A DNA stretch of 64,000 bases. Origin: Thermothelomyces thermophilus ATCC 42464. Taxonomy: Eukaryota > Ascomycota > Sordariomycetes > Sordariales > Chaetomiaceae. The first letter of the stretch is position 1, and each line of letters opens with the position of its first letter. This document shows positions 43,201 through 64,000 of this stretch, piece by piece. A program made the position numbers and the translations under genes. The notes beneath the pieces are model-generated. The model did not search any database. It saw nothing but the letters and a program-made list of their open reading frames with translations, and was not told the DNA's origin. The stretch lies in NCBI RefSeq assembly GCF_000226095.1, contig NC_016474.1, positions 4,588,001 through 4,652,000 of the forward strand. The letters run 5' to 3'.

Positions 43201-44405
43201 AGGAGGCGGAGGGACGCCCGAGGCGAGCTTTGGCCTCTCTTCATCAGCACTGCCATGGGTGATTTGCAGGACCTTGGTGCCGCCCCACAAGAGCGAGTTC
43301 TTGTCCAAGCCTTCGGGATCAATGGGAGCGTCGCCAGGACGGAGCTGGATCGAGTCCTTCAAGAGTGGGGTGCTTTCACCAGAGAGCATGGCCTCGTTCA
43401 CGATGGCGGTGCCCTCGACGAGGATCATGTCACAGGCCACGCCACTGTCCTCCTTGGTCCGGGTAACGGATACCAGGTCGCCCGGCAGCAGCTTGTCGCT
43501 CTGAATCTGGGTCCACTTTCCAAGACGGAAGACGTATATATCGTACGGCTTGATGCTCATGCTGCGGAACTCGGTCAAGGTGCGCTGGCGCTGCCACACG
43601 ACGGTGCTCTCGAACATGACGAGCATGAAGAGGGTGAAGAGCGAGTAGTACCAGTACTCGTCCAGCAGCCAGAGGCCGACACAGAAGACCTGGAAGACGA
43701 AGAATGGTGCTACGGCATGCTCCTTGAACAATTCGGTGAAGGTCGGAACGGGAATGTCGAACGTGTTGGTGCCATAATGCTGCTCGAGGCGCTCCAGGTC
43801 GACAGCACTCGTGATACCTCTTGACTTCTGAAACGTTTCGAGCTTCGGCTTCGGTTCTGTGTCGATGGCGTACACCAGAGTTCCAAACGATTTCGTCTCA
43901 GGGTTGTAGAGGAAGCGGCGTTTCTGGAAGAGGAACGAGGTGTTCGTCTTGTCACCGACCTAGGACGGATTGGGTCCGTCAGCGCCTGTCACCGTCCGGG
44001 GAGAAAAGGGGCTTTGGATTTGGCTTTGGCTTTGGCTCTCTGGCTTACTTTGGTGCGCTCGAGCTTGCAGATATCGGCAGAACCGGCATTCGCGGCGGGG
44101 ATGACCTTGATCAGCAGCGCGTCATCGACAGAGCGCGCCTTCTTGGCGGTAAATGCGGCGTTGAGGTTGACGCTCCAGTGAGTGCAGAGCCAGACCAGCG
44201 TCTGGCAGGTGATAATTGTGCCAACCCATACGAAAGTCCATTCGGGCGCTTGAATGTGCTTCTCGTACAGCTCGGGCGTCAAGTAGTAGCGCAGAAAGAC
44301 AGGCCAGATGATGGCGAAGGGCCAGACGTAGGCGTGCTGATACAGGGGTAGCGGCCGCAGCAGCTCGGCGCTCTGGATCTGCTCGTTGTCGACGAGCGGC
44401 GCCAT
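40295..44405 (-). CDS. spf1: P5A-type ATPase Spf1 (ER transmembrane-helix dislocase)
   Basis: ER-resident P-type ATPase that removes misinserted transmembrane helices and supports ER and manganese homeostasis. Three exons: 44049-44405, 40901-43959 and 40295-40835, giving 1,318 residues, close to fungal orthologues. The N-terminus (RPLPLYQHAYVWPFAIIWP) holds the extra P5A helices. In order follow the A-domain AMLSGESTPLLKDS, the P5A helix signature PPELPMELSLAVNTSL, the phosphorylation site FDKTGTLTGEDLVVEG (Asp498), MITGDNPLTAVHVAREVEI and the hinge MAGDGTNDVGALKQAHIGVA. The C-terminal helices end in a long charged coiled segment (about 1255-1318) that faces the cytosol. The start ATG lies in a GCCATGGC context. 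The large plus-strand frame inside this gene is an antisense shadow. Confidence 0.96.
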
Positions 44406-46327
44406 GGCTGATCGAGCGAGCGGGGGTTCACAATGGCCGTCTATGGTGTCCTCATTGAAGGAGTGGCCGGGCCGGAGCAGTGTGGGTGGGCGCTGATGGT
44501 GGGAAGAAGAAGAAACCTGGAGGAAAAATGTCCCGATGGAACGACGAGCGCGAGTTCGTGGAATGCGGACGTTTCTGCTTGGCCCACTCAACGTGGTGGC
44601 ATCTTTCTTGGCGCCGCCGCGAGCACGCGGCGGGCAGCTGCTGCCACGTGGAACATCTGGTAGCAATCCCCAAAGGCCCAAAGACTCATTACCTATCAGG
44701 AAGCCTCTGGAAGGGCAAGCAATTTTCAACGCTACTTATAGGGACCAGCCTATTTCACTCCTACATAATAATCTAAAAATGTGCCATTCAGTTTTGGAAA
44801 GCTGTCAGACTTTAAGACGTACACTTGTAGAAAGGAGTTTAGCTCTTTGAAGTCATCTGGAAATTCTAAACCCCGCCAAACCTTTAAAAGCAACTGGTTA
44901 ATTCCCAGAAACGGTATAATTAGCTAGCGGAATAATCCGTACAGACACCACGTCCACGCTCTGTAATCACGCTTCAGCCATTGCCTCAACCCTTAGTTGA
45001 TGATGCTGACACTTTGGTATTTCTAACTACCGATTTTCCGCAACCCGCCTTTCTTCGTGATGCGTAGTCTTCGGTAAGAAAAACACTGAATCCATCACCT
45101 CGGGCTGGTCACTGCAGAACATGCAATAATTAATTAATCGCTCGGATACCAAAGCAACGACTAATTAGATTTTGTGATACGGTAGGGTTGGCTCTAAGCA
45201 TGATCTACTTCGAGCTACTTCAGCTCCTTCTTGGACACTCTTCAACTCGCGGCAGCCGTGCGGACAACGCAGATTGGTCAGGTGTCGTATCGCCTCTGCT
45301 AAAACTATTAAACACCGTGAAGTCCAACGCATTAAAGGCCCGCCCACAAATACTTTAAGTTTTCCTTCATAATTATCTGTTGCCCCCTGTACATTACGTA
45401 CGGCCTTTGGTGGGATCTCAGGACGAGACCAACGGTGTTGAGGATTATGTTCATTTCTATGAGAAGAATAGCAGCGAGAGAGTGCTTCAGTTTCTCGTCG
45501 AAAGTTGTGTTGAGTGAATCTCTCGCAGCCACCGACCTCCTCGCTAATTCAGCGAAGACGCACGGCATGTTCTCATACAGCGAGACCATCATGGCGGCTA
45601 GGCGCTAGGTCCTAATTCTCTCTGTGAGGAACGTACGTCCGCTTGGAATACTGCACTGTTGTGGTTTTGCGGGCTCCCTGTAAATAATGTACCGTTTGCT
45701 TGGCCTTGTGTAAACGATAAGCGATCTATTGTTTACCACGGACTCTGCTTTCGGGGAAAATCAAGTGACCGTGTCCTACAACGAAGAAGATAAGTAATTA
45801 GCCACTCAACCTTCGTAGCTCGGGCCTTCGGACCCAACTTTGCCGCCTGCGCCTCTCCTGTTTTACTTCATATTGCTGAATGTAATCATCTGGTCAACGG
45901 GGGAGTCGTCACGGTTCTGTCAATCGGTCAAACGGGGCTCGTACGGCCCATACCTTCTTTTTTTGGGCGGGCTTGACGGATATAACGGGCGAAGTACTCC
46001 GATTGGTTCCAAGTTTGCGAGTTTGTGACGCGATCGAGTGTGCGGACAAAGAAGGCACCAAACGACCATCAACGGAGATAGAGCCGAATATGCCACACTG
46101 TCGAGTTGCACATCGGCACATCGGACTGCGGATATACCGGGTTCCAGGAACTTCCCGAAACCGAAAGATGTGAGTAGAGCGAAAGATTTAGATATCGGTC
46201 CTGGCGGGCAGTTGCCATTTGGCTTCTTCTGCATCTGCTAATTAAATAGCCAGGACCAACCACCGACAATATTCCTCCTCTCTACGTTCGTCTGCGAAGA
46301 AACCAGTCCTGCTTATCAGCAGCAAAA
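44406..46327. other. 1.9-kb divergent intergenic region
   Basis: Carries the promoters of spf1 (-) and the aldo-keto reductase gene (+). The middle (about 44760-45170) is AT-richer. A CGG-N6-CCG palindrome, a typical Zn2Cys6 factor site shape, lies at 44938-44949. A minus-strand frame of 86 codons at 45332-45592 shows no family and no support. Confidence 0.5.
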
Positions 46328-47484
46328 ATGAGTGCCGCGACAAAGATCATTACTCGGCCCTTGGGCAAAAATGGCCCTCTGGTGCCGCGCATCGGACTCG
46401 GCCTGATGGGCTTGAGCGGCGCCCACGGCGTGCCCAGACCTGACTCTGAGCGACTCGCATTCCTGGACAAGGCATATGAGATGGGAGAGACCTTTTGGGA
46501 TACGGGTATGTTTGGTTTTCCTTATTCCCCTCCCCCGCCCCCGCCCCCCGAGACAACCATCATCTTCTTGCCTGCTCTCTTTAAAATGGTGACATTGGAT
46601 CTAATTAATGCCCATGCCGCACAGCCGACATGTACAACGATTCCGAAGACCTGCTGGGCAAGTGGTTCGCCGCCAACCCGGAGAAGCGCGGATCCATCTT
46701 CCTGGCCACCAAGTTCGGTTACCGGCGCAACGAAAAGGGCGAGCATGGCATCGACACGTCTCCCGAGTACGCCCGCCAGGCGATCGAGAAGTCTCTCAAG
46801 CGGCTCGGGACCTCGTACGTGGACCTGTACTACCTGCACCGGCTCGACAAGGCGACGCCTGTCGAGAAGACAATTGCCGCGTTGGCCGAGCTCAAGCGGG
46901 AGGGCAAGATCCGGCACATTGGGCTGAGCGAGTGCAGCGCGTCGGCCTTGCGCCGTGCCCACTCCGTCGAGCCCATCTCGTGCGTGCAGATGGAGTACAG
47001 TGCCTTCAGCCTGGACATCGAGGCCCCCGAGCACGCGCTCCTGGCCACCGCTCGCGAGCTGGGCATCGCCGTCGTGGCCTACAGCCCGCTCGGCAAGGGC
47101 ATGCTGGGTGGCGGCATCCGGTCGGCCGAGGACGTGTCGAAGCCGGGCGACATGCGCGCCGCTTTTGCTCCCCGCTTTGCCAAGGAGAACCTGGACGCCA
47201 ACCTCGCCCTCGTCAACAAGCTGACCGAGATCGCCGCCAACAAGGGCATCACCACGGCACAGCTGGCCTTGGCCTGGCTGCTCGCCCAGGGTGACGACAT
47301 CTTCCCCATCCCAGGCACCAGAAATCCCGAGAGGCTAGCTGAGAACCTCGGCGCCCTGGAGGTGACGCTCACGGAAGACGAGGAGAAGGCCATCCGGCAG
47401 CTTGCCGACAAGGTGGCGGGATCGAGACTTGGCGCCATCTTGACCGATTACTACTTTGGTGACTCGCCGCCCTTGGAGGCTTAA
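46328..47484 (+). CDS. aldo-keto reductase (YakC-like)
   Basis: NADPH-dependent reductase of aldehydes and ketones in the (beta/alpha)8-barrel superfamily. Two exons: 46328-46505 and 46625-47484, 345 residues; the junction rebuilds FWDTADMYNDSEDLLGKW. The catalytic tetrad is visible: Asp and Tyr in DTADMYNDSE, Lys in LATKFGYR and His in YYLHRLDKATPVEKT. The family signature LKREGKIRHIGLSECSA and the cofactor-end motif FPIPGTRNPERLAENLGAL are intact. The length matches fission yeast YakC. It ends 488 bp from the 3' end of the polyketide synthase gene and faces it tail to tail; a role in that pathway is possible but rests only on position. Confidence 0.93.
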
Positions 47485-47972: not shown

Positions 47973-50900
47973 TTAGCCCCTTTTCTTCAGCAGAGCCGGG
48001 TACGAGGCCGACCCGGGCTCATCAAACGTCTCAATGAGTGCCGCCACGGCCGGATGCAGCCCCGCGGCAATAGCCCTGCGCATCCACTCGTCCATGGGTA
48101 AGACCTCATAGGGCTTCTCACAGCCCTTATGGCGCGCGATCTCGGCCATGCTATGCATCGGGATGACAATGTCACCGACATTGTTCACGTACTTGATATC
48201 CTTGCTCTCACCGCCACGCAAGAGGCCGCCCACAACATCGTCACACACGCTGCGCACATAGACCAGATCGAAGCTGCCCTTGTTGTGATCGACGCGGGGC
48301 ACAGCGGTGATGGCGTGCGCGTAGTGCAGCAGCGCGTTAACCCAGTCCATTCCGGCACGGTCGTTGGTGGCGTCGGCACCTTCGCGGATGATGGTGGACG
48401 GGCGTTGGATCCAGATGGGCAGGCCGGTCGCCTCATGGACCTGCTCCAGCATCCGCTCGCACACCCACTTACCGCACATGTAGCCATGCGCGCCGTCGGG
48501 GGGCGGCAGGGCGCCGGTCTTGGTGGCGGGGATCTCCGGGAAAGCGTCGAGCCCGGCGAACAGGGCCACGCCGGCGCTCGAGATGTAGTGCAGCGGGATC
48601 ATGCGGCGCACACACCGCTGTACAATCTCTCTCGTGGAACCAACATTGGTGTCGCGCACGGCCGAGTAGAACTTGAGGTGCGACGTGTCGGAGCCGTTGT
48701 GGATGACGGCGTCGGCCTCGTCAAAGATGGCTTTCTCTTCCTCCTCTGCGAGCCCGAGCCTTGGGGCGCCGAGATCCCCCTCGTAATAGACAACGCGATC
48801 GCTGGGAGGAGGCAGCTCGCCCTTGGCCAGCCGGTCAGCGAGCTGGCGCACGGCGACACAGATGATCTTCTCAATCGACGGCTCGGCCGCGAGCCTTTCG
48901 AGGAGGTGGTGGCCCAGAAGCCCCGTGGATCCCGTCAGGATCACCACTCTTGGGACCTTGCTCGGAGCCTTGGTGTCGGCAGACGGCAAGGTCAGCTCTG
49001 GCGGACAGGCCTCAGCTTCCCAGTCGATACCAGAGATCCTCTTGGGCGGAGTAGCACTGCCAGGCGACGTCGCTGCGGTGTCGGGCACCTGGCCGTTTGA
49101 TGTGCTGGCCGGAGTGTCGGCCGTGTTTGTTTCAGAGCTGCTGTCGTCTGCCTTGCCATCGGCCACAGCTCCTTGTCGGACCTCGGGGATCAGCTCGGCG
49201 GGAACGCCTTCGACAGCAGCCTCGACGAGGCTCGACATCTGGGCGTCGTTGGCCATGATCTTGAGCACCGGGATGCTGACCTGCAGATTCTTGAGGAACC
49301 ACGACCGGATGTCGACTGAGATGAGTGAGTCTAGACCCAGGTCGATGCTGCGCATGTTCATCATGTCGTCGTCGCCCGTCGAGATCTGAAGGATTCTCCG
49401 CAGCTGGGCGGCAAACGCGCTCTTGACAACCTGGAAGACCTCACCCTCGGAGCGGCACGCTTTGAGGCTATCCAGGACGGATGCAGTGTTGGTCTTCTCT
49501 TTGCCCTTACCACCATCGGTCGTCTTGTTCACGACAAGGCGCGCAAACTTTGGATCAGTGTACCATTTGGGCATGTTGGGCGTGTCGGGAGAGATCTCGA
49601 GCAAGCCGGTAGAGATCTCAGGCCCGTCAGGTGAGTCGAGGTATCCCGCCTCCATGACCTCCGCGAAGATCTGGTGGAAGTCCTCTTCGGACAGGTGGGT
49701 GAGGTGCGTGTTAGCCACTGTGAGATCGAGTTGGCGCGCAGATTGCGTGATGTAGCCGACGCCGATAATAGCACCCACGTTTGCCACGCTGGAGACCAGG
49801 CCGCGACGTCTCCGGGCAGCCGCCACACCGCACATGCCCATGTTTGCAGCGGCGTAGTTGGCCTGGCCGACGTTGCCGATGACGCAGTTGATAGACGACA
49901 GGAGGACAAAGAAGTCGAGGTCGACGTCGTGGAAGATGCGATCCAGGTGCAAGCTGCCAAGCACCTTGGGCCGGATGACATCAGTGACTTGCTCGAAGAC
50001 CATGTTGCGTACCATGCCATCTCGGAGGACCATGGCACCATTGAGGACGCCCACGATGGGCGGAAGCGTGTCGACAATGGTCTTGTGTACGGCTCGAAGG
50101 GCGGCCTCATCCGTCACATCACAGGAAAGTGTGCGGACGGTTACCCCATTGGCCGCATGGTTGTCAATCCATCCTTGGTCGACTTTCGGGTTGCGGCTGG
50201 TGAGGACTAGATACTTCACTCCCCGGTCGATCATCCAGTCGCACAGCGAGATTCCCAGCGCGCCCGACAGACCACACAGCCAATAGGTCTTGTCGCTCTT
50301 GAAGAGCGGGATGATGTCGAACCTAGTAACTCTGGCGGGGAGCACAGTTGCCGTGGTCCAGTCAACCACCGTCGAGGGATCGCTGGGACGCTCGTTTCCG
50401 GCGACGGCCTCAAGCGGGACCGTCGTCGTCTCGACGGCAGCACTACCGTCCTGGCCATATTGGGCAGCCGCCTTAAGTGTCGCTCCTATGAGCTCGTCGA
50501 TCGACGCGCCATGTTGAGTGGCCTGTGACGAGTAGATTGTGTCGGCGGTCTCCCTGCGGCTGAAAGGGGGCAGCACCGACAAAATTGTCTGCTCATTGTC
50601 TGATGCGTCCACAGAGAAGCCGACAAAGAGGGCGACATCTACTGGCAATACCCGGCTGACCTCGGCCTTCCCTGCATATTCAGGTAGTCGAACCCAGGAG
50701 TTTGGAAGTTTGTGGGCCTCCTCATCCGATCCGTCCACCGCGAAGATGACCTGGATTTGCTTCTGAGCCGCTTGAGCTTCGATTGCCCGAGCCACGTCTT
50801 CAGGGGCGTTGTGTACGACAATGGTCTGCCCGGGATACAGTGGCTTGAGTATGGCTGCGGCAATGAGATGAGTAGCTGTGACCTTGAGAATCGTAGTTTC

Positions 50901-53900
50901 GGAGGGGCTGGAAGCATTGAGGGGCACGGTATGCTCCACGGGAACTCTGAGCACGGAGACCGGGGATGATACGAGGGCCAAGTACCGAGCACCGTTGGAA
51001 TCCGCACCCACGGCGAGGAACCGATGGCCAATAGGGGTCTTGATAGCGGACAGAATGCTCTGTGTGGTACGCAGCTCGATGGTATTGGGCCTAGAGCGTC
51101 AATATGTCAGCATGGATAATTGCATGCTGAATACAAGATTGGGAAAGAGGGAGGAAGGGGCTAAGAGATGACAATAGGAAGCACATACTTCGTGATCTTA
51201 AATCTCTCGTCGTATCTTGACAGCTGCCTCACGAAGCAGTTCCCGCTGTCCTGGACAAATTCAACCTCGGCCTGGCGCAGGTCGACTTCGTGGCCAATAA
51301 GCCTCCGTGTGGAGTTTAGGCGGTTGTTTGCGGCCGGGATCATCGTCAGACGAGGCACCAGCTCGCGGCCCTGCTCGTCAATGATCATCTCAGGCTCCAC
51401 CGTGTACAAGATGTCCCGGCTCCGGAGCTGTTTCGAGTTGAACCTCACGAAGGCCTCAACGATAGTCTTGGCGTCAACCTGGTTGACGTCGGCTATGTCA
51501 AGATACTGAAGGTGAAGATCGTCTTCCTCGTGCACCGCCGACCGGCCGAAACCCACACTCATGTTATGGTACGGCTCGTCACGGAGTCGGCCCTTGGTGA
51601 GCCAAAGAACAGACTTCTGGCCTTCGAAGAAGCGGCGGAAACTGTACCATCTCTCCGGGGTGATGTCTTGGAACACCGGGTGGTCGAGGTCCGCCAGACT
51701 GATGATTTTAGCATCGGGGGTTGCGACCTTGTTGGCGTCCACCTCCTCGAGAGTGGGGTACGCGTGCACCTGAGAGCCGAGGCCAGACAGGATACTCTCG
51801 ATGCCGCGAGCGAGCTTAGCGACGGCAGGCGTTTGGCCACCGACGAGCACGACGTCTTTGACCGGAGGGCTGATGGGCGACGAGAGCGGGTTTCTGGCTA
51901 GCTCGATCCGGGTGTCGACGGCCTGCGAGACAAACAGGGTGATGCCAAAGGTGTCGAACAGTTTAGGGGGTGACATGGTGTCGATCCCAGAGAAACCGTT
52001 GCGCTTCAGAATGTCGTCCCATTGAGCAGCATTGACAAGCGGGGACAGCGTGCGGCCCTCGTCGATGCCCCGCCACCAACCGGGCAGGGTGCCGAAGATG
52101 AAGCCGGCTCCCACCTGCATCATACCGTCGCTGCTGCCCTCACCGATCAACAGGTACCCGCCCGGGCGGAGCAGCTTGCGCAGATTTCGCACGCTCTCTT
52201 CTAGCCTTGCGGTAGCATGCAGCACCATGTAAGCGACGACGACATCGTAGGCCCCCTGAGTGAAGCCTTGCTCCACGGGATCACGCTCGGCATCACACGT
52301 CTTGAAGACGATGCGATCCACCCATGGAGAGAGCGCCTCTGCCGCGTTCTCGAAGAAACTGGACGAGATATCGGTAAAAGTGTAACTGTCAAAGCTCCTC
52401 CCAATGGCATTGAGGATGTGTTTGGTAGCACCTCCGGTGCCAGCGCCTGAGAGAAACAGAATTAGCCCTGCGCAATCCCAAATAGTGGTGCGTCTTCGTA
52501 CCGATTTCTAGCAGGTTTAGATGGGGGTGACGGTCTGAGATCTGCTTGACGACGCTGCCTAGCCACTGGGCCGACTGCATGGTTCCGAACCCGTGAGCGT
52601 AGTATTCATCCAAGAGCCCAGACTCGCGGAAATGCTCCAGCATCGTAGTCTCGCCCTTGAAGACTCGCGGCATGACTTCGCCTACAAGCAACATGATTCT
52701 GACATCGGAATTGTTGCCAACTCTGTGGGAGGGGAATTGGTTAGTCAATTACTTATTTGGTACTTCTCTGGAAAACACAAAGGTTGAATCACTTACCCTT
52801 TGGCCTTGATTTCGTCCAGAATATCCTGCAGCATGTCATTCTTCCATTCCTCTTTGGCGAACTTGTTTTCGTCCCGGTCTAGAAGATCCGTGATGTAGCG
52901 GGCGTAGTTGAGATAGTGGCACAGCGGAGACTCAGACCTAGCGGGCGAGTCCTGGGGAACATCGCGATCAAACTGCCGCAAGTAGAAGTTGACGATGCGG
53001 CTCAGGATCCACATCATGTCCTTCTCGTATTGGGTTACGGGGATCCCGTCAGCAGCGGTGTAGCCATCGGGGTTGGCGGGCACTAGGTCCATCTTGCAGA
53101 AGATATTGTGGTCATCACTGGCCCCGGCACCAACGGGCTTGAAGAGGACATGGTCCACCTGCACTGCGGCGTGGTTTGAGCCGTGGAGATAGATGTTGAC
53201 GTTGCCCGAAAATCCGGACCCAGGGCTCGAGCGGTCCTCGGGATTACAGGTGGAATCAACCTCCATGAAGTCGACCTCGCTTACCCCTTCTGGCCTGGCC
53301 AACGCCGAGGGATTCACCCTAATTTTGGAGATGGTTGTGGGTAGGTGCAAGTTCCGCAGTTGCTCATCGCCCGGGTAGCTGTACGAGACCATGATGGACT
53401 GGAAGGCAGCATCCAGATCGACGGGGTGAATCAGCAGACCAACACAGTCGGGGGTCGATGCCCGCTTGGCCACGCACGCGGCGCGCCCAAGCTTGCGCTC
53501 GAGCGTCACGAGGGACCTGAAGGGGCCGCTGAAGTTGTACTCGAGGCTTTCCATGAAGCCATACAGACGTGGCTCCTCGACGGGGATCATGTGTGGGGGC
53601 TTCGGTTGCCGCTCAGGGAGGAGGTTGGGCGACGCATCCTCGCACAATGACAGCCGCAAGTCTGCGTCGACGGCAAGTGTGAGATCCGAGGCTGCATCAC
53701 CGCCTAATGCCGCAGAGTATGAGAATCGGGCCTCGATGTGTTCTGGGTGCTTCCGGTCACGCGTGATGTTGGTCAACTCGGCCAGTACCTCGATTCCAGT
53801 GTCGTTGTTGCCGCTGAAGGCAACAGCCTGATGGATCGTCAGGTCGGCTAATTCGATGAGGCGGATGTTCTTGCCCGCTGCGAGCACCCGGGCTGCCTCC

Positions 53901-56900
53901 AGCGCGGTGGCCACGTATCCAGCTGCAGGGAACACGACCTGTCCCTGCACCGTGTGGCCTTCGAGCCACTGCATCTCGCTGGGCTTCAGCACGTTCTTCC
54001 AGCGCAGTGCGTGGGCGCTGCTGTCGGGTGTGGGATCGCCCAAGAGCGGGTGGAAGGCCGGTTGGCGCAGACGCATTTGGCGCGACCTTCGGGATTCGCC
54101 CCAGTATTTGGTCTCGTGGTTCCACTGGTATGACGGGAGATCCTTGAGGACGCGGAAATGCTGCTTTTCGCCTGAGAGCGCCGCCTCAAAGCTACTCAGG
54201 TCAACCGACCCCTTATCCAGATGGCTCCACAAGAACCCAAGGGCGTTTGACAAGGCTTCGATGGCGTGAACGCCGCGGGAGAGCGATCCTTGATAGGGAA
54301 GCGGTTTCTGAAGCACCTCCTGGATCGTCTGGCCGGACGGACTCTTGAGCGCCGGATGGGGGCCAACCTCAATTGCGACGTCAAACGAGATGCCTGACGA
54401 TAGGGCTGCCTCAAGCGCCCGGGAGAAAAGGACCGGCTTGACCATGTTTTGCACCCAATATTCATCGCTGAGCTCCGGTGAGTACTCCATGGGTTTCCCG
54501 TCAAAGACACTGGAATACCAAGTGCAGGGACGGGGCAGCGAGAGCTTCCGAGCCTTGATGCCGGCACGCCTCATTCCCTGAAGGTAGGGGTCAGCCGCGG
54601 GGACCATGTGGAGCGAGTGGTAGGCATTGTCCACGCGCAGCCGGCGATGGAACTTCTTCTCCTCCCCCATGATGGCCTCGAGCTCCGCGATAGCATCCTC
54701 ATCGCCTGAGATTGTGACGCTAGATGATGAGTTCACAGCTGCCACGGAAATGCGGCCGGCAAAGTCAGGGTCACTGCAGATCTCCTCGGCGTCGGCGGGC
54801 GAGGTGCCCACTGCGAGCATGGCTCCGGCAATGTGACTGCCGTTGGGGCTGCCAGCATGTTTGCAGTTCAAGCCGCGGTAGTAGGCAACGCAGAGGGCGT
54901 CGCGCGCTGTCAGGAAGCCGGCGGCATACGCGGCGCCGACCTCGCCGCCCGAGTGGCCCACGACGGCATCAAAGTGGATGCCAGCCGCCCGAAGGAGATC
55001 CACGAGCATGATCTGCACTGCCGTGTTGAGCGGCTGCGAGATCGCACTCTCGCCCATCCGAGAGACGGAGGGTGCTGCCAGGATCTCGGCCTCGAGGGAC
55101 CATGATGGACGGTCAGGGACAGGGAGCTCACCAAGAGACACCTCCAAGTCGCGGATGATCTTGGCGGCGAACGGCGATTCCCTGATAAGTTCGGCCGCCA
55201 TGCGTGGATACTGGGCACCTTGACCCGTAAACACACCCAGGAGTTTGGGAGATTCGTCTCCGCGGCGTCTCAGCGTCCTGGTACTGATGTTAGAGTCCTG
55301 GCTCTCCAAGCGCGCCAAGATGTTGACTTTCAGAGCGTCGACGCTAGTGGCTGGGAAGGAGATGCGATGGGAAAAGACCGTTCGGCGATCTCGCAGCGTG
55401 TACGCCAAGTCGTGGGCATCGACGTCTGGATGTTCTCCCAAATGCGCGGCATAGGCCGAGAGCGTGGCCCGGAGGGAGTGCTCGGACGCTGCAGAGAAGA
55501 CGAACGGGCTAAACAGCGCTCTATCATTGCGTCCAGGTTCGACACCTCCACGGTCATCGTAGCTTTCTAGGATGGCATGGGCGTTGGTGCCTCCGAAGCC
55601 GAAGCTGTTGACGCTGGCCCGTCTTGTTTGGACAGCTGGCCAAGGCTTGGCGGCGCGGAGGATCTCCAGGTTCTTGTAGAACGGCTTGACAGAAGGGCTG
55701 AGGTTGTCGAAAAGGAGGTTCGGGGGAATCTGGCCGTGTTGAATAGCCAACTTGGCCTTGAGAAGTGCAGCAATACCGGCTGTACCCTCGGTGTGGCCAA
55801 GCACCGTCTTGATGGAACCAACGTACAGACGGCTGTCGTTACTTCCTGGCCGTACACCTTGCTGCCCGCCAAAGAATGCAGTACTGATGGCCTCAGCTTC
55901 AATGGGATCTGAAAAACATCAAAGCGTCAGTTCGTGGGCAACATTTCAGGATCCCTTCTGCCTCCAGGATATCAGGATTCTCACTTACCGCCAGCCGGCG
56001 TGCCGGTTCCATGCGCCTCGAAATATTGAGGGCGATCGGCTGGCGCGTTGATGTCGAGGCCAGCCCTGGCGTATGTGCTCTCGATCAGGGCCCGTTGAGC
56101 CGTCGCGCTCGGCATGGTGAGCCCCGTCGTCGTGCCGTCCTGGTTAAGTCCCGTCTCGCGGATGATGCACTCGATATGGTCGCCATCAGCGATGGCAGCA
56201 CTGAGGGTCTTCAGCAAGATAGCCGCCACGCCGTCTCCACGGGCGTAGCCATTGGCGTCCTTGTCCCACATTCGGCCGCGGCCATCGGGCGACAGCATCT
56301 TGAGCTTGCTCTCGATGATATATGTCTCAGGCCCCAGGATGACGTTGGCACCACACGCCACAGCCATGCGCGAGTCGCCTGCGCGCAGCGTCTGAATGGC
56401 CGAGTGTACGGCTACAAGACTTGATGAGCAGGCCGTGTCGATGGTCACGGCGGCGCCGTGCCAGTCGAAGAAGTATGAGATACGGTTCGACAGGATAGCC
56501 CGGGATGTGCCGACGGCGAAGTAGGTCGGAGCGGCATCCAAGTCACGCAACAGCATGGCTTCATAGTCGCCAATCATGACACCTGCATAGACTGCAGTAT
56601 CGCTTCCTTTCAGGCTGTCCAGTGTCATGCCGGCCGACTCGACCGCCTCATAGACGGTTTCTAGGAGAATCCGCTGCTGAGGGTCCATGGCGCGCGCCTC
56701 GATGGGGTTAATTCCGAAGAACTCGGCATCGAAGGCGGTTGGGTCGTCGTTCAGGAGGTAGGAGTGCCTCACGTTGGAACGACCGTGGTGCGCTCCATCC
56801 GGATGATAGAAGCCATTCGCGCTGAAGCGGCTCTCTGGGATCTCGGAGCGCACATCGCGAGGCTCGCGGAGGAGGTCCCAGAGCTTCGAGGGAGAGCTCG

Positions 56901-56970
56901 CATCGCCAGCGAAGCGGCAGGCGCTGCCCACGATGGCAATGGGTTCTTGTGATGCAACCTTGGATGGCAT
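47973..56970 (-). CDS. highly reducing polyketide synthase with terminal thioester reductase
   Basis: Iterative type I PKS, cytosolic. Five exons: 55989-56970, 52797-55908, 52502-52722, 51189-52446 and 47973-51090. All phases close, giving 2,896 residues. The ATG at 56970 starts [15 protein letters not shown]; the frame upstream opens only with [13 protein letters not shown] (Cys181), [41 protein letters not shown] (Ser647). [20 protein letters not shown] (His979). C-methyltransferase: [16 protein letters not shown] (about 1434-1449), rebuilt across intron 3. A pseudo-KR region follows, with no enoyl-reductase domain. [13 protein letters not shown], with Tyr2270 in [20 protein letters not shown] (Ser2446). 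[20 protein letters not shown] and YMCGK (Tyr2728, Lys2732). The R domain should release the chain as aldehyde or alcohol. The missing ER function is probably supplied by the stand-alone reductase gene upstream. Confidence 0.95.
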
Positions 56971-58085
56971 TATGACAAGAGTTTCTGAATAGGACACCTT
57001 CTTTCAGTACCAACGAAGTTGAGTCAGTTCGATACTGAGTAATTAGTGTCGCTGTGGCTGAGCAAACAGGCTTGGTTGAACAACATACTGGTGCCTGTCT
57101 GACCGACTAGCCGACTAGTTAAGTGTAGCTCACACATGGGGGGGAGTGTTTTTACTACCGGCAACGGACCTCCAATGATTGGTGTCGAACGGGAGTCGGC
57201 ACCCCGACGACAAGCTAGTTGCATCTACGCGGTCGGTTCCTGCATCTCAGAATGCCACACCGTGGTGTTCGTCCGACGCCGAACTGACCCGGCAGCGCGA
57301 CGGGCATCCGAGTCGGATTCGGAGCCTCGCTACTCCATGATCTACTGCGCAGATAGCAGACCGCAGGCGAATTAACCGGCTGATGTTTTGCGCGAAGGGT
57401 CTGGTTCCAACGCGGTGTCTCATGCCGAAAGAGGCAAACCGACGGCGGCCGACCTTCCATCGCCACCTGGATACCTTGATGGCTGCCGGCTTGGTTTTCG
57501 GATCCGAATTCGCATACGTCGTAGAGGTAGCCGTTGCCGGCTTTAGGAAACTGACAGTCCTGTCGTGCCAGACTGGAAAGATCTCTCCGCCGATGCTTGT
57601 AGGCGCTGGCCACATCCTCTTTCTTCCTTGTCGCAATTCCTTCACGAAGGTGCTGCTGATCAGCTACCGGAGCGTCGGGATGTATGAGATTGCGTTTGGC
57701 GACTGCTGTTGATGAAACATTGATTCACGTGTAGAATCGCAGCATTGTTGCTCCCTCTTTTGTTGTAAAACTCGTGCCCTTACAGTGGAGGCTAACTTGC
57801 TTGCTGAGGGTAACCATTTGCAGGTGTGATGCTCTCTCGGGGCAGGTGCGTGGTTGAATGGGTTGAGAAAAGAAGGAGCTATTAATTACAGCATCATTCG
57901 AGGTTTCCGCAATGCGGGGACCAACGATTTCGTTGCGATTTACTCGATTTCTTGGAGAAGCGTTTTGTAGCATTCTTCACTAATTATCATTCTCAAAACC
58001 GCGCTAATTAATAGAATACAAGCAGATTGCTCCATTCCCCGCGTCCCACTGGTTGTCCGATCCGCATGGCTGTTGCGCGTCGCGT
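56971..58085. other. intergenic, PKS promoter
   Basis: Lies between the PKS ATG and the end of the trans-enoyl reductase gene. A CCG-N3-CGG palindrome, a possible Zn2Cys6 site, is at 57308-57316, about 340 bp before the PKS start. A plus-strand frame of 109 codons (57383-57712) has no recognisable features. No transcription-factor gene is present here. Confidence 0.5.
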
Positions 58086-59249
58086 TCAGCTTCTCGAAAT
58101 GGTAACTACGAGCTTCTGCCCTTTCGACTCCCCGCGCTGTAGGATTTCGACTGCCTTGATGACGGCCTCGAATCCCTCGCCGCACTCGCGGACGGGCTGC
58201 GTCGTTATCAGGCCTTGGTCCAGCAGCGACTGCATCTCAGCTCGCCATTCCGATGCGAGGGCGTGTAGATCCATGTTCGCCTTGCGCGTGTAAACGGGGT
58301 GGCCGAGGTCAACGTCGACCCCTTGGGCTTCAAACCCCATCACCACCTTGACCTTGACCGACGGACGTGTGCGCCATCCTTGCGGACAGTCCTCGAGGCA
58401 AGCATAGCGCCCGCCCACCCGCGAAAGCGCCCCGAAGCACGTTGCGACCGATTCCGGATCCGTGATGCAGTCGAACGCATGCTTGATGGGCACCCCGCCG
58501 GTAAGCTTCTTGATGTCCTCCAGGCAGCTTTTCGACGTGTACGAAGCGGTTCCGATGGCGCCGTAACTAATCACCTGTGGCGCCGACTTGGGCGAGCAGA
58601 CGGCGATGGGCGCGTAGCCTGATCTGTTCGCGTGTTCCTCGTGTTAGCGAGACGCCACATCGCGCGACTCTGTGTCTTGCGGTAGTACTGACTGCTTCAG
58701 CATTTGGATGGTTATGATGCCCGTGGCGGTAGCTCCGCCGTACACCAACACCGGCAGCGGCTTCTCAGCCGGCTTCGACGGCCGTCCCGGCAGGCCCAAC
58801 GCATCCGCGGGAGATATGGCCAGACAGGCAGTGCCCCATCCGATAGCGCCAAGTGCGGCGGCCCGCGTGTCGCTCCAATCCTCAGGGACCGCGAGAGCCA
58901 GGCGCGAGTCACACACGGCATACTCAGAGAAGGCGCCGCTGTAAGGATTGTTCGGTCGGTAAGGGAAGTCGGCGCCGCAGATGCGCCTGCCAGGCTTGTA
59001 GAGCGCAGATGGCCCAGCGAACTCGACAACGCCGCAAAAGTCGCAGCCAATCGTGTTCCCTTCCATAAAAAAGTGGGTGATCATCTTGAAGTCGGTAGGG
59101 TTCAGCCCCACGGCACGGACGCGAACGAGGACATGGTAAGGGGTCGGCAGCTCCGGTACTGGCTGAGAGCGCGATACAGCGAGAGGGACCCGGGTCGAGG
59201 TGGAAGGCTGTTTGGACTGAACGACGGCCGTTTGGACCTTGAGCGCCAT
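58086..59249 (-). CDS. trans-acting enoyl reductase (LovC-type)
   Basis: Stand-alone medium-chain dehydrogenase that reduces the alpha,beta-enoyl group of the chain on the neighbouring PKS with NADPH, replacing its missing ER domain. Two exons: 58693-59249 and 58086-58623. They join at [15 protein letters not shown], and the product is 364 residues, almost exactly LovC length. Motifs are [32 protein letters not shown] (GCDxAG-like), [40 protein letters not shown] (the nucleotide-binding GGxTATG of trans-ERs) and [11 protein letters not shown]. The zinc ligands of alcohol dehydrogenases are absent, as expected. It diverges from the P450 gene and lies 1.1 kb upstream of the PKS on the same strand. 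Confidence 0.93.
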
Positions 59250-59882
59250 TGTTAATATCTCGGTAAGCAAGCAGGGAGAAGCCTGTACACTCGCAACATC
59301 CCAGGCGGCGACATTTGCGGCCTTGAATCTGATCCCATAGCTACTTGGGGGCAAGACAGGACGGGGGTCTGATGTACGACGAAGGCTGAACACGATCCGG
59401 CGGAGGAATCGAGGGCCGGCCTTGCGGTTGACAACGGGGATCCTGGGGAGAGAGTCGAAGAGAACGTCCCAAATAGGAAACCGATTCCGAATACCGAACT
59501 GTAGGACCGCTCGCTTCCGGCTTATCTGTCTGGACCTCAGCGAACATCAATTCTCGAGAAGCCAATGGCCAATCAATCGCATAATGGAGCTATGACTGTG
59601 AGTTCTTGGACGACCCGGGGGCGGACACACTCCGATCCATGGTTTGGGCATTCGAGGGCTTCAGGATTTCCCCTCCTGCGCACAGGGCCGATCAGAGTGC
59701 CGGACTGGCGCCAGCCTGCCAACTCAGCTAAGACGGGTATTACAGCTGAAGGTATGTGCCCAATGAAGGCATGTGCCCAACTACTGCTACTCTGACGCGA
59801 GCAGGTCATAACCCCTTCCATCCGCTTGCGTGAATGAAACAAAGCGGAAGTCGAAGAGGAAGAGAGGCGATTGAGAATCACC
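59250..59882. promoter_or_regulatory. divergent promoter of the trans-ER and P450 genes
   Basis: 633 bp between two head-to-head cluster genes. Two CCAAT boxes stand 7 bp apart at 59562-59566 and 59569-59573, almost exactly midway (about 315 bp) between the two ATGs. CCAAT is the site of the fungal HAP/CBC complex. A shared control region for both genes is inferred from the layout. Confidence 0.55.
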
Positions 59883-61761
59883 ATGCCGACCACCGCTTCC
59901 ATCCCAGGGGCAACTTTGGCGCCCATGTCGGGACTGTCGGCGGCGTCGTTGGCGCTGCTTCTGGTCGGGCTGGTGAGTGTGTCGCTGTGCCGCAATCCGA
60001 CAACCGATTTCAGACCAGACTATTAACAGACGAGGTTGAGACCGCCTCGTATTTTCTCCTCCTGAGGCCTCTCTACAACATCTACTTCCATCCGCTCCGC
60101 CGATACCCCGGACCTAAACTGTGGGCCGCGTCGTCGCTACCATGGGGCTTTTCGTTCTTGAGCGGGTACTGGCATCACCGCGCCCTGCAGCTGCATACCC
60201 AGTACGGTCACGTCGTGCGTATTGGCCCAAATGAGCTCTCGTTCGACGTTCCCGAGGCTTGGGAGGACGTGTACGGGCGGTCGAAGCACCGAAAGGAAAA
60301 CCCCAAGGCTCCGTGGTACCTCAACCCCAAGACCAAGGAGATTGTGAGCGCGCGGCTCGAAGAACACACGCGCATGCGCCGCCTGCTGGGCATCGGCTTC
60401 ACCAACACAGCCATGCTCGAGCAGGAGCCGCTGATTAAGAGCCACGTCGACCTGTTCATCCAGCGTTTGCACGAAATCAACAGCGGAGGCAAGGCCGCCG
60501 TCGACATGTTCGAGTGGTTCGCGTACTGCACCTTCGACATCATCGGCGACCTGTCCTTTGGCGAGCCGTTCGGGTGTCTGCGCGACTCGATGCTGCACCC
60601 ATGGATCGCCTGGGTGTTTGCGAACATCAAATTGGCCCACACCCTGGTCTTGTGCAACCGAATCCCCTTCTTCTTCCTCTTCCTACCCATCCGGCAAACC
60701 CTGGCGCTCGTCAAGGGCGCGGGGTACTTTGAGAAGACCATGAAGGCTGTCACTGACCGGCGTCTGGCCCGCGACGCCGAGCGGCCCGACTTCTTGCAGA
60801 TCATGAAGACGCCGCGAGGGAACTCGGTACGTTCTGGCCTCCCCCGAGAAAATAGTAGCCGTACCTGGGACTGAGATTGCTTGTTCCAGTTCATGACTCG
60901 AGAAGAAATTCACAGCAACGCGTCCTTTTTGACCATGGCAGGATCCGAGACAACGTCGAATTCGATGGTCGTGGCCGTGTACATGATATGCTTGTACCCA
61001 GAAACCAAAGCAAAGATCATCGACGAGCTGGCCGCAACCTTCAACACCGAGTCCGAGATCGACATGCGCAGCGCGGGCAAGCTGACGTATTTGATGGCCG
61101 TCATTCAGGAGAGCATGCGCTACCATCCGCCGGGACCCAACGCACTGTGGCGCATAACCCCTTCGGGGGGCAACGAGATTCTAGGCGACTGGCTGCCCGC
61201 AAAGGTGAGACCGTCTGCCGCCTTGATCCAGATTCTTTTTTTTCTCCTTTCTTTCTGTCTCGTTGTTATTGGAGATCAAGTTCGATGATTCCTCTGCTCC
61301 AGGGGGCAAACTTGGCTAACACGCGAGACTGCCTGCTTAGACTATACTTGGCATACCGCACCGCGTCATGTATCGCAGTGAGCACAATTTCAAGCACGCG
61401 AACGAATTCATACCGGAGCGTTGGTTGGATGTTGAGGGGGAGCAGTCCGAATTTGCCAATGATCGCAGAGACAGCTTCCATCCGTTCTCTTACGGACCAC
61501 GGACTTGTCTTGCCGTGAAGTGAGTCGCCCGCTTGTCTTCTTTCTCGGCATGTGTCTGCTTGGTCGGCCGGCCACTAACATGTGCAAACCAACAACAGTC
61601 TCGCCTACGCCGAGATGCGCTACATCCTTGCGCGCCTGATGTGGAATTTTGACTTTGAACTGGCCGAGCAGAGCCGGAACTGGGCCGATGGGCTCCGCGC
61701 TTGGTTGATCTGGGAGAAGCGACCACTCTATGTCCATCTGAAGCCGAGACGTTCGAAGTAA
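59883..61761 (+). CDS. cytochrome P450 monooxygenase of the polyketide cluster
   Basis: ER-anchored heme monooxygenase, expected to oxidise the polyketide released by the neighbouring PKS. Five exons: 59883-59972, about 60035-60826, 60890-61204, 61341-61519 and 61599-61761, giving about 512 residues. Exon 1 (LSAASLALLLVGL) encodes the membrane anchor. The first acceptor is uncertain: in-frame AG sites at 60013, 60034 and 60040 all work, and the earliest would leave an intron of only 41 nt. Motifs are YNIYFHPLRRYPGPKLWA, the I-helix AGSETTSN, the ExxR of QESMRYHPPGPN, NEFIPERW (PERF region) and the heme loop FSYGPRTCLAVNLAYAEMR with ligand Cys about 455. The residue two after the Cys is Ala where Gly is usual, a tolerated change. 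The class resembles the CYP families used for late tailoring of reduced polyketides. Confidence 0.92.
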
Positions 61762-64000
61762 CTAGTAGAAGAGCATCCTACCTTAAACTGTTGGCAGTTT
61801 TTGACCACAGACTACTGGGGAGAGAGCGGTTCTACAATCTGAGGTAGCGGAGATTTGCCTTCGGCAGTCCTCGAATCCGGGGATCGAGGCTGCGAGTTCT
61901 ACAGGAACGGATGTCAGAACTGAGTGAGTGGACTGTCGCCACCACGTCCATCTGTCTTGTATCCATCGCGTCCTGTGATGAGACAGAAAGCGTTGGATAA
62001 GCATATATCATTCACCCTGCATGCACTCGTTTACCGGAGGGTCGTGACTGTGTGAAAAAGAGACCAATTGCCCTTGATACGCCACCCCCAACCCCCGTGC
62101 AACACCAGGATCTCTACCTCTGTTATCTCTCCCAAAAGAAGACTCTACCCGCCAGTCTCGGTGTCCTCAAACGTCAAAGTTCAAGCAGCTCGTGTCAGAG
62201 CTCGTAGCAGGCTCGTACTCTACGGATCCCGGCCCCCAAAAGGGACCGGAGGTTGGCAGAAACCGGCCCGTATTGCCGGCGTCTCTCGGCTGGGACGGGC
62301 GGGCACGGGCAGGTGGCAGTGCCGGGGTGCTGTTAACCCGCCTGTGGGACGGAGGAAGGCCAGCGGTAACACCTGGATGTCGCATGATGCGGCCCCCGTG
62401 GAGGGTAGTATTGTTCTCCTGCTCACCAAGATAGCCCGCTAAATGGCATTCCATATTCTTCTGTGCGTGTATCCTTCATCCTCGCCTCTTACCCCCCCTT
62501 CCCTTTTCGTTTATTTCCCTCCCCCGTCGGGCTGGCTTGTAACGTCATCAAGGGCTCCTTACCTTTAATTATTACCCATGTTCCACTGGTTTGTCGGCCG
62601 GTAACCAGACTGACACAGTAAAAAGCCAAACGTGCTGTGTGGCTCCGTGCCTTCTCGGTGACTAATTACTGTAAAAAAAAAAAAAGGACGAGTCGAGTGT
62701 GGCTTACTCATGAGATCCTCCGCCTTATCCGTGCTCGGTATACATACGGTACCGTACATATTGGGTGGTTGAATACTGTCACGGCCAGGGTGGCGTTTAA
62801 TCGGCTCGACTACTAATTAGATACAGGAGAGGGGAAGGAGAGGGAGGGGGATAGATCTGCGCACACGTGGGGTCTGGCGTTTTGCGGTAACCACGTCAGT
62901 GGAAGCGGTCTAATAATAATATCTCGTTTGTGCGCACTCACGAGGGGTAAGCGCTACCCAAACGGTGTTACCCAGTTACCAGCTGCTTGGTTGTGCGGCA
63001 ACCGACAAGGCAAGCAACGCGGCTTGGCAGGATGAGAGTATTGCTTTGGGCCTGGTAGGCTGTATGCAGAGGGTGATCTTGATTACCTAGAATGGGCAAA
63101 AACAAAGTCACCATCCTTCGTGCCCTGGGTGCGTCGTATCCTTTAGATTCACGAACTTGAGGTACTGTAGGTGGGTAACCTAAGGCACTTGGGCGAGGTA
63201 ATTAAGGCGAGAAAGGTAGGAAAGTAACCCCCCTTCCCCCCCAACCTACTCGAGGCCTAGTGAAATAGCTAGCAGGCCTGCACTCTTTTTCCATGCATGC
63301 CTGTCTGCGTATACTAGGTGCCGAGACCTTAAGGAAGTCCGGGATTGCATGGCCTAGGGTACCTACGGGAGAAATGTAAGATAGGTACATTTTCTACCTC
63401 AGGTCACATGTACAACATACGCCCTACACTAAACCCCATCCACCCGTGGTCCAGACCAGACCTGAAAAGTGAGGCACAAAAATGTGCCTTGCTGGTTAGG
63501 CACGCTTTGGGGCCGCGTGGGAAAGTTCCGATGTTCCCAGGTGCTTTCTCCCCCCCAGGTGGAAGGTCCGTTGTGCACGGGCAAGGCTCTCCCGTTGTGC
63601 GCGTGCATACCTTTGCTCATAGTCACTGCGGCACAGTCGACCGCGGCTGCGTAATAATCCATCGACGACGGGCTTTCGGGAGTAATCTCGTCAGCCGGTG
63701 AGTCCGACGACATAGTTCGGCAGCGGACTTCTCGAATCCAATCCCAAGCTCGTACCAAACTTGCTGTCCTGCGCTTACTCCGGTGGCGTCGGCCACGGAG
63801 AATCATGGAGAGAAGCTCAGCCCGTCCTTATTGTGGTTTCAGCGGCCGAGAACGAGCTAGGTAGCCTAGCGTTCCGTCATTTTCTGCTCCTTCGGGAAGG
63901 GGAGTCCCTCCCAAGCCCGCTCGGGAACAGTCCATGTGGCTCGAAGGGCTGACCCGAAGAATTTGATGAGCAGGGACGGATCTCTGAGAGGTTTCGGATG
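61762..64000. other. 2.2-kb right end without a recognised gene
   Basis: Only short frames without motifs, poly-A/poly-T runs (about 62673-62686) and purine-rich blocks (about 62826-62850). No tRNA or repeat array is seen. A gene starting beyond the window may have its promoter here. Confidence 0.5.

What the first reader, a model, noticed from the sequence alone, without database searches (positions are those of the whole stretch)
47973..61761. Compact three-gene polyketide cluster: reductase-terminated HR-PKS, trans-ER and P450
Sequence shows a KS-AT-DH-MT-pseudoKR-KR-ACP-R synthase, a LovC-type reductase and a P450 side by side with nothing else between. The most similar logic known to me is the betaenone system (bet1 PKS with R domain, bet2 P450, bet3 trans-ER), whose product is a decalin aldehyde. 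Inference: this locus makes a methylated, reduced, possibly decalin-bearing polyketide released as aldehyde or alcohol. No betaenone-type SDR, transporter or transcription factor is seen, so the product is probably different or partly made by genes elsewhere.
Basis: partly seen in the sequence, partly recalled or inferred. Interest (0 to 1): 0.8.

Follow-up and report, generated by a model that had tools for sequence, protein, structure and literature searches.

The report
Betaenone-like polyketide gene cluster, cut short
A fungal chromosome carries an intact set of genes for building and releasing a ring-forming polyketide; it is a cousin of the known betaenone and stemphyloxin pathways rather than one of them, and the gene cluster may well continue past the edge of the stretch that was first read.

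Summary
The three genes are real and look intact. They are a 2,896-aa highly reducing PKS (KS-AT-DH-MT-psiKR/ER0-KR-ACP-R), a 364-aa LovC-type trans-enoyl reductase and a 510-aa P450. The genome appears to be Thermothelomyces (Myceliophthora) thermophilus. The named relatives are betaenone and stemphyloxin enzymes: PKS 59% to Bet1 and to SthA; ER 63% to Bet3 and 65% to SthE; P450 52% to SthF. Trees put all three genes outside the Bet/Sth clade, in a lineage with a Pseudocercospora fijiensis synthase that is probably PKS8-4, a cluster expressed in spermagonia. An AU test rejects grouping the window PKS with Bet1/SthA alone (p 3.6e-08). The claim of a three-gene cluster lacking SDR and regulator is doubtful: just beyond the window's right end lie a BBE-like flavoenzyme, a second P450, a CmcJ/NvfI-type oxidoreductase, a regulator and an SDR. 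Whether those genes belong, and what the product is, remain untested. Best reading: an orthodox decalin-aldehyde pathway of a little-studied sister lineage, most likely with its own tailoring. Moderate interest; a new member of a known kind.

The parts
47973..56970 (-). highly reducing PKS, KS-AT-DH-MT-psiKR/ER0-KR-ACP-R, 2896 aa; exons 56970-55989, 55908-52797, 52722-52502, 52446-51189, 51090-47973
   Evidence: splice model gives one open frame; introns checked; Pfam; 59% identity over 100% to Bet1 and SthA; motifs present
47973..48986 (-). C-terminal thioester reductase (R) domain of the PKS, about residues 2560-2896, for reductive release
   Evidence: Pfam NAD_binding_4 106 bits; TIGR01746 131.6 bits, below its cut-off of 213; Ser and Tyr-x-x-x-Lys present; PsoA R domain is the best solved relative
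58086..59249 (-). trans-acting enoyl reductase, LovC type, 364 aa; exons 59249-58693, 58623-58086
   Evidence: best solved relative LovC, E 6e-49; 63% Bet3, 65% SthE; tree
59250..59882 (.). 633-bp divergent intergenic region between the ER and P450 genes (possible shared promoter, inferred)
   Evidence: gene models; no word of 10 or more bases is shared by three or more of the five promoters compared
59883..61764 (+). cytochrome P450 of the SthF type, 510 aa; exons 59883-59972, 60041-60826, 60890-61204, 61341-61519, 61599-61764
   Evidence: Pfam p450 217 bits (on the earlier 512-aa model); 52% to SthF; haem motif FSYGPRTCLA with Ala where the usual motif has Gly, as in SthF; first intron acceptor chosen to agree with T. 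myriococcoides
46328..47484 (+). aldo-keto reductase, convergent with the PKS; possible but unproven aldehyde reductase of the pathway
   Evidence: Pfam Aldo_ket_red 233 bits on its second exon; sequence read; start
40897..44735 (-). P5A-type ATPase, an ordinary gene taken as the left border
   Evidence: Pfam E1-E2_ATPase, Hydrolase and 2TM_P5A-ATPase on two ORFs
61765..64000 (.). no gene recognised up to the window end; the next gene (BBE-like flavoenzyme) starts at window-equivalent 64205, outside the window
   Evidence: no ORF of 150 aa or more; sequence to 62600 read

Best explanation
This is the left part of a secondary-metabolite cluster in what appears to be Thermothelomyces thermophilus. 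SHOWN from sequence: an intact R-terminated highly reducing PKS without a recognisable ER domain of its own, a LovC-type partner ER, and an SthF-type P450, whose trees agree in placing them near betaenone/stemphyloxin enzymes, in a neighbouring lineage shared with a P. fijiensis cluster that is probably PKS8-4. INFERRED from the family: the PKS and ER together build a C-methylated, partly reduced chain; an intramolecular Diels-Alder reaction gives a decalin; the R domain releases it reductively as an aldehyde (betaenone logic, passages of PMC6274466 and PMC10063976); the P450 then oxidises the decalin in several steps (function of SthF recalled, not seen in a call). INFERRED from position and class only: the BBE-like flavoenzyme, second P450, CmcJ/NvfI oxidoreductase, regulator and SDR to the right (and perhaps the aldo-keto reductase to the left) tailor and control it, so the final product is probably a new relative and not betaenone itself.
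For: Complete frames and motifs. Domains, and solved relatives LovB, LovC and the PsoA R domain. 59% full-length identity to Bet1 and to SthA. By domain, identity to Bet1/SthA is DH 59/60%, MT 74/70%, KR 78/79%, ACP 68/68%, R 62/61%, against 47, 57, 66, 57, 56% to P. fijiensis P0049. PKS, ER and P450 trees agree in placing the window genes with Nemania and/or Monosporascus and P. fijiensis, outside the Bet/Sth clade. Genes travel together: of 119 PKS rows with a contig length, 44 share it with an ER row, 12 with one of the 60 P450 rows that I entered (of 120 listed), 6 with both. Right-flank enzyme genes. A BBE enzyme (SthB), and a 74% identical enzyme in P. betae, are reported for stemphyloxin/betaenone producers (PMC11375781 passages).
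Against: No metabolite, expression or mutant data. No product is known to me for the sister lineage; a pks8-4 disruptant of P. fijiensis showed no polyketide difference (abstract and passages). In three other parts of the PKS the window enzyme is slightly nearer P0049 than Bet1/SthA: KS 72 against 70/68%, AT 63 against 58/61%, psiKR/ER0 45 against 42/43%. The BBE is closest among solved proteins to MtVAO615, a secreted flavoprotein of M. thermophila without known function, and the genome has 8 BBE matches including this one, so it may be an unrelated neighbour. Gaps between the right-flank genes are about 0.3-2.5 kb. Promoters share no long word. Diels-Alder ring formation cannot be read from sequence.
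Confidence: 0.68

Rival explanations
1. The cluster is only the three genes. PKS, ER and P450 suffice to make a betaenone C-like decalin; the right-flank enzymes are unrelated neighbours.
For: The three genes abut, and relatives of all three share a contig length in 6 cases. In the recalled stemphyloxin scheme PKS, ER and SthF already give betaenone C without the SDR. The BBE resembles a secreted flavoprotein family with several members in this fungus.
Against: Five enzyme or regulator genes of cluster-typical classes follow within about 16 kb; a BBE belongs to the stemphyloxin pathway and has a 74% homologue in P. betae.
Confidence: 0.2
2. It makes a known betaenone or stemphyloxin.
For: 59% PKS identity over the full length and well conserved MT, KR and R domains.
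Against: The PKS, ER and P450 fall outside the Bet/Sth clade; for the PKS, grouping with it alone is rejected at p 3.6e-08. psiKR/ER0 is only 42-43% identical to Bet1/SthA.
Confidence: 0.08
3. A developmental, PKS8-4/PKS4-like function: a non-decalin reduced chain acting in sexual reproduction.
For: The clade-mate P0049 is probably P. fijiensis PKS8-4, whose promoter activity was seen only in spermagonia.
Against: DH, MT, KR, ACP and R domains of the window PKS are nearer Bet1 than P0049 (KS, AT and psiKR/ER0 are slightly the other way). PKS4 of Neurospora is reported to lack the R domain and a cluster (passages). A decalin product and a sexual role are compatible.
Confidence: 0.12
4. The locus is decayed and silent.
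For: No expression data; haem motif has Ala in place of the usual Gly.
Against: No stop or frame break in the 3 spliced genes; close copies in T. heterothallicus (PKS 97%, ER 98%, P450 90%); the Ala is shared by SthF.
Confidence: 0.03

Closest known systems
Betaenone cluster of Neocamarosporium (Phoma) betae (Bet1 and Bet3 were among the rows found; no row was named Bet2 or Bet4)
   Same: PKS architecture with R domain, 59% identity over the full length; trans-ER 63%
   Different: separate clade for PKS and ER; gene order, Bet2 and Bet4 could not be compared
Stemphyloxin II cluster of Parastagonospora nodorum (SthA, SthE and SthF among the rows found)
   Same: PKS 59%, ER 65%, P450 52% with Ala in the haem motif; a BBE enzyme in the published pathway and a BBE gene beside this locus
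   Different: separate clade for all three genes; CmcJ/NvfI oxidoreductase and zinc-cluster genes on the right whose membership is unproven; SthB, SthC and SthD orthology untested
P. fijiensis PKS8-4 cluster (rows P0049, P0171, P0275; assignment inferred)
   Different: only 53% PKS identity; long branches; its haem motif reads FSCGPRMCPA; plant-associated Dothideomycete; product unknown
Lovastatin LovB/LovC
   Same: iterative HR-PKS with a trans ER; best solved relatives
   Different: terminal R domain here, where LovB is released by a separate thioesterase (LovG; PMC6274466 passage)

Membership tests
Betaenone/stemphyloxin (Bet1/SthA) clade proper | KS-AT-DH-MT-KR-ACP-R synthase with catalytic motifs present | tested here: met
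Betaenone/stemphyloxin (Bet1/SthA) clade proper | LovC-type trans-ER and SthF-type P450 beside the PKS | tested here: met
Betaenone/stemphyloxin (Bet1/SthA) clade proper | PKS inside the Bet1/SthA clade | tested here: not met
   whole-PKS tree (38 hand-picked rows) and AU test p 3.6e-08 (23 rows); the group was named after the tree was seen
Betaenone/stemphyloxin (Bet1/SthA) clade proper | SthB-type BBE aldolase | tested here: inconclusive
   a BBE gene is 2.4 kb from the P450 but no SthB sequence was at hand
Betaenone/stemphyloxin (Bet1/SthA) clade proper | Bet4/SthC-type SDR | tested here: inconclusive
   an SDR lies about 15 kb to the right of the P450; no reference sequence was at hand
Betaenone/stemphyloxin (Bet1/SthA) clade proper | decalin product of the betaenone type | not testable with these tools
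   needs chemistry
PKS8-4-type sister lineage | PKS, ER and P450 each grouping with the P. fijiensis genes outside the Bet/Sth clade | tested here: met
   support 100 (PKS), 88 (ER), 99 (P450); that the P. fijiensis rows are PKS8-4 is inferred
PKS8-4-type sister lineage | expression in sexual structures | not testable with these tools
   no expression data held
Lovastatin/LovB type | LovB-like synthase without a terminal R domain (recalled) | tested here: not met
   NAD_binding_4 R domain at the C-terminus; LovB outside the set that holds the window PKS in the KS tree
PKS-NRPS hybrids | condensation and adenylation domains | tested here: not met
   none among the Pfam matches of the four PKS pieces; the protein ends with the R domain; the PKS-NRPS rows form separate branches
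Sordariales PKS4 | orthology with Neurospora/Sordaria PKS4, reported to lack the R domain | not tested
   no row so named; report seen in passages

The most novel reading that the evidence does not exclude
The right-flank enzymes belong to the cluster. The locus makes an unreported, more heavily tailored decalin (P450, BBE and CmcJ/NvfI chemistry) that represents the still product-less PKS8-4 lineage and serves sexual development. T. thermophilus would then be a tractable host in which that lineage's metabolite can first be found.
Probability: 0.15. Interest if true: 0.62.

Novelty: new member of a known kind. Interest (0 to 1): 0.36.

Why it matters
Two phytotoxin pathways (betaenone, stemphyloxin) are the characterised examples near this PKS, and the passages that I saw report no product for the sister lineage, which includes a synthase whose promoter is active only in spermagonia of a banana pathogen. 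A copy in an industrial thermophile that can be mutated with guide RNAs (PMC10071736, passages; non-pathogenic as far as I recall) would be a convenient place to learn the product and test the reproductive link. The case also shows how a cluster can look minimal because of where a window ends.

Tried and rejected
Membership in the PKS-NRPS or LovB group was considered and rejected. A decayed locus was rejected. A shared regulator site across promoters was sought: no word of 10 or more bases is shared by three or more of five promoters; CGG-CCG pairs occur in every promoter looked at, 2 each in the two control promoters and 1 to 13 in the others, which differ in length; no statistics were made. 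The first intron of the P450 was first modelled with acceptor 60034 and then changed to 60040 after comparison with T. myriococcoides; the homology search, Pfam scan, P450 tree and haem-motif alignment used the earlier 512-aa model. AU test C did not finish. Brute-force splicing of the CmcJ-type gene gave 28 models, so its exons are not settled; two models of the second P450 were printed, and the one with the haem motif is taken. Trees used rows picked by hand from the listed homologues: KS 51, whole PKS 37, R 30 and the AU set 22, of 120 PKS rows; ER 28 of 120; P450 27 of 120. Literature: ten searches. No title or abstract start listed there described this cluster in Thermothelomyces, but the library lacks most subscription journals, supplementary files could not be searched, and I read none of the papers in full: nine were seen as passages (one of them with its outline and abstract).
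Full report
WHERE IT IS. The window is G000:C3:4588001-4652000 of a 38,744,216-base genome in 7 contigs. The genome is most likely Thermothelomyces (Myceliophthora) thermophilus. The window PKS is 97% identical to that of T. heterothallicus. A piece of MtVAO615, a flavoprotein of M. thermophila C1 (PMC6017366, passages), matches the genome at C3:4931k (L016) in three stretches: 100% over 179 residues, 98.5% over 67 and 94% over 18. The species name is an inference; the tools give none.

THE THREE GENES. The PKS (56970-47973, minus) has four short introns with GT-AG ends. Splicing them gives one frame of 2,896 residues. Pfam recognises KS, AT, DH, MT, KR and a terminal NAD_binding_4 domain in the four exon pieces. 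The catalytic motifs examined are present. One deserves mention: AT reads GHSGG, where 107 of the 120 listed homologues have GHSSG and 5 of 120 share GHSGG. The ER (59249-58086, minus, 364 aa) has LovC as its best solved relative. The P450 (59883-61764, plus, 510 aa) has the I-helix AGSETT, the ESMR and a cysteine haem motif. ER and P450 diverge from a 633-bp spacer; the PKS follows the ER in the same direction.

RELATIVES. The best named relatives are Bet1 and SthA for the PKS (59% each over 100%), Bet3 (63%) and SthE (65%) for the ER, and SthF (52%) for the P450 (no row named Bet2 among the 120 shown). These listings stop at 120 rows, score only the candidates sharing most words, and carry names for only some rows. 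In the alignment of the window P450 with its 40 best relatives, 15 of 40, SthF among them, carry C-[IL]-A where the usual motif (recalled) has Gly; three rows have gaps there, the two Pseudocercospora rows read CPA, one row lacks the Cys, and the others read C-[IL]-G. This supports, without proving, a common origin of the window P450 and SthF.

PLACE IN THE FAMILY. In the KS tree (59 rows) the window PKS groups with T. heterothallicus and Chaetomium strumarium, inside a set of 29 rows (support 87) that also holds Bet1 and SthA. LovB lies outside, and so do six other synthase fragments of the same genome (two served as outgroup; three stand on long branches). The tree of the PKS without R (38 rows) is better resolved, though its outgroup did not form one side of a branch. 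The Chaetomiaceae genes join Monosporascus, Nemania, Zymoseptoria, Teratosphaeria and P. fijiensis (9 rows, support 100), and that group is sister (support 86 only) to the Bet1/SthA group (10 rows, support 100). Holding the window clade together with Bet/Sth alone costs 86 log-likelihood units (AU p 3.6e-08, 23 rows; the groups were named after seeing the tree). The R-domain tree (32 rows) agrees in outline with weaker support (82 for the 11 rows that hold the window gene). The ER tree (29 rows) puts the window ER with Nemania, Ramularia, Teratosphaeria and P. fijiensis (88); the P450 tree (28 rows) puts the window P450 with Monosporascus, Pseudomassariella and Pseudocercospora (99). So the three genes seem to share a history.

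THE PKS8-4 LINK. P0049 of P. fijiensis is probably PKS8-4, for three reasons. It has the R domain. Its contig length is shared by an ER row and a P450 row, whereas the P. musae PKS row shares only a P450 row. The paper reports the ER in M. fijiensis and not in M. musicola (passages), P. musae and M. musicola being one species (recalled). No accession in the text confirmed it. PKS8-4 promoter activity was seen only in spermagonia, and the disruptant showed no polyketide difference and no change in spermagonia (abstract and passages). A Zymoseptoria cluster in print is called 25% similar to the betaenone cluster (passages); whether it holds P0048 was not checked.

CO-OCCURRENCE. Using contig length as a stand-in for contig identity, 44 of the 119 PKS rows with a length share it with an ER row, 12 with one of the first 60 P450 rows and 6 with both. 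The lists are truncated, so misses mean little.

WHAT THE WINDOW EDGE HID. I fetched C3:4652001-4692000; window-equivalent positions follow. A BBE-like flavoenzyme lies at 64205-66357 (three exons, 581 aa; Pfam FAD_binding_4 and BBE on its last exon). It has a His and a Cys at places that, by eye, fit bicovalent FAD enzymes, and its closest solved relative is MtVAO615. A second P450 starts at 67174 (597 aa with a haem motif). A CmcJ/NvfI family oxidoreductase starts at 70244 (163 bits against a cut-off of 80, on a hand-joined protein). A minus-strand Fungal_trans regulator lies at about 71858-74250 (25.9 bits against 23; its zinc-cluster part read by eye). An SDR lies at 76647-77861 (all NCBIfam matches shown are below their cut-offs), and a Zn_clus protein ORF at 80310-82253. 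A small ORF near 75000-75480 resembles an ABM-type monooxygenase by eye only. Beyond follow Whi5-like, amino-acid permease, V-SNARE and thiamin pyrophosphokinase genes, i.e. ordinary genes. To the left are an aldo-keto reductase, a P5A ATPase, a lactate/malate-dehydrogenase-type gene and others without a cluster-like look among the ORFs scanned. Stemphyloxin biosynthesis includes the BBE enzyme SthB, an aldolase in function, and P. betae has a 74% identical protein (passages). The classes therefore match, but class is not orthology: I had no SthB, SthC or SthD sequence, and the genome has 8 BBE matches, this one among them.

HOW IT MOST LIKELY WORKS. Following published betaenone logic (trans-ER partner and reductive release, passages of PMC6274466; decalin by Diels-Alder and methionine-derived methyls, passage of PMC10063976), PKS and ER make a methylated chain that closes to a decalin and leaves as an aldehyde. 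DH (59%), MT (74%), KR (78%), ACP (68%) and R (62%) are closer to Bet1 than to P0049 (47, 57, 66, 57, 56%), which favours a betaenone-like backbone. KS (70 against 72%), AT (58 against 63%) and psiKR/ER0 (42 against 45%) lean slightly the other way. The P450 would oxidise the decalin as SthF does (recalled). The extra enzymes would act later if they belong. Only the enzyme classes and the kinship are shown; substrate, chain length, ring formation and product are inferred.

VERDICT. The betaenone comparison is right in kind and too narrow in kinship.

Noticed in passing
L011:2935-8784 and L012:100-1272 (C3:4570935-4579272), 9-17 kb left of the window start: Another, more distant PKS (26-64% identity in pieces) lies about 57 kb from the window PKS on the same chromosome.
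   Followed up: no
L003 (C2:5439537), L005 (C3:1193171), L007 (C5:803564): Three further synthases of the same genome match the window PKS at 51-57% over most of KS-AT; one may be the published myceliothermophin PKS-NRPS (recalled, not checked).
   Followed up: partly
P0264 (Pyricularia grisea, named Rab geranylgeranyltransferase by its source): A P450 near the SthF clade with Ser in place of the haem-ligand Cys (FSYGPRASIA): a wrong model, a decayed gene or a changed function. Its source name does not fit its p450 domain.
   Followed up: no
P0011 and P0125 (source names): Apparent name-transfer errors: a Bet1-like PKS of Hypoxylon texense is called 'protein transport protein bet1', and the T. 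heterothallicus trans-ER 'chaperonin 10-like protein'.
   Followed up: no
L016 (C3:4931385) and L018 (C3:4942642): Two BBE genes 11 kb apart; the first is MtVAO615, solved but without identified function.
   Followed up: partly
window PKS relatives: Among the 120 rows only Thermothelomyces and Chaetomium strumarium reach 84% or more; the next rows (60-65%) are Monosporascus, Colletotrichum, Hypoxylon, Nemania and Dothidotthia, and other Sordariales rows that I recognise are at 48-51%. Patchy descent or transfer was not tested.
   Followed up: no
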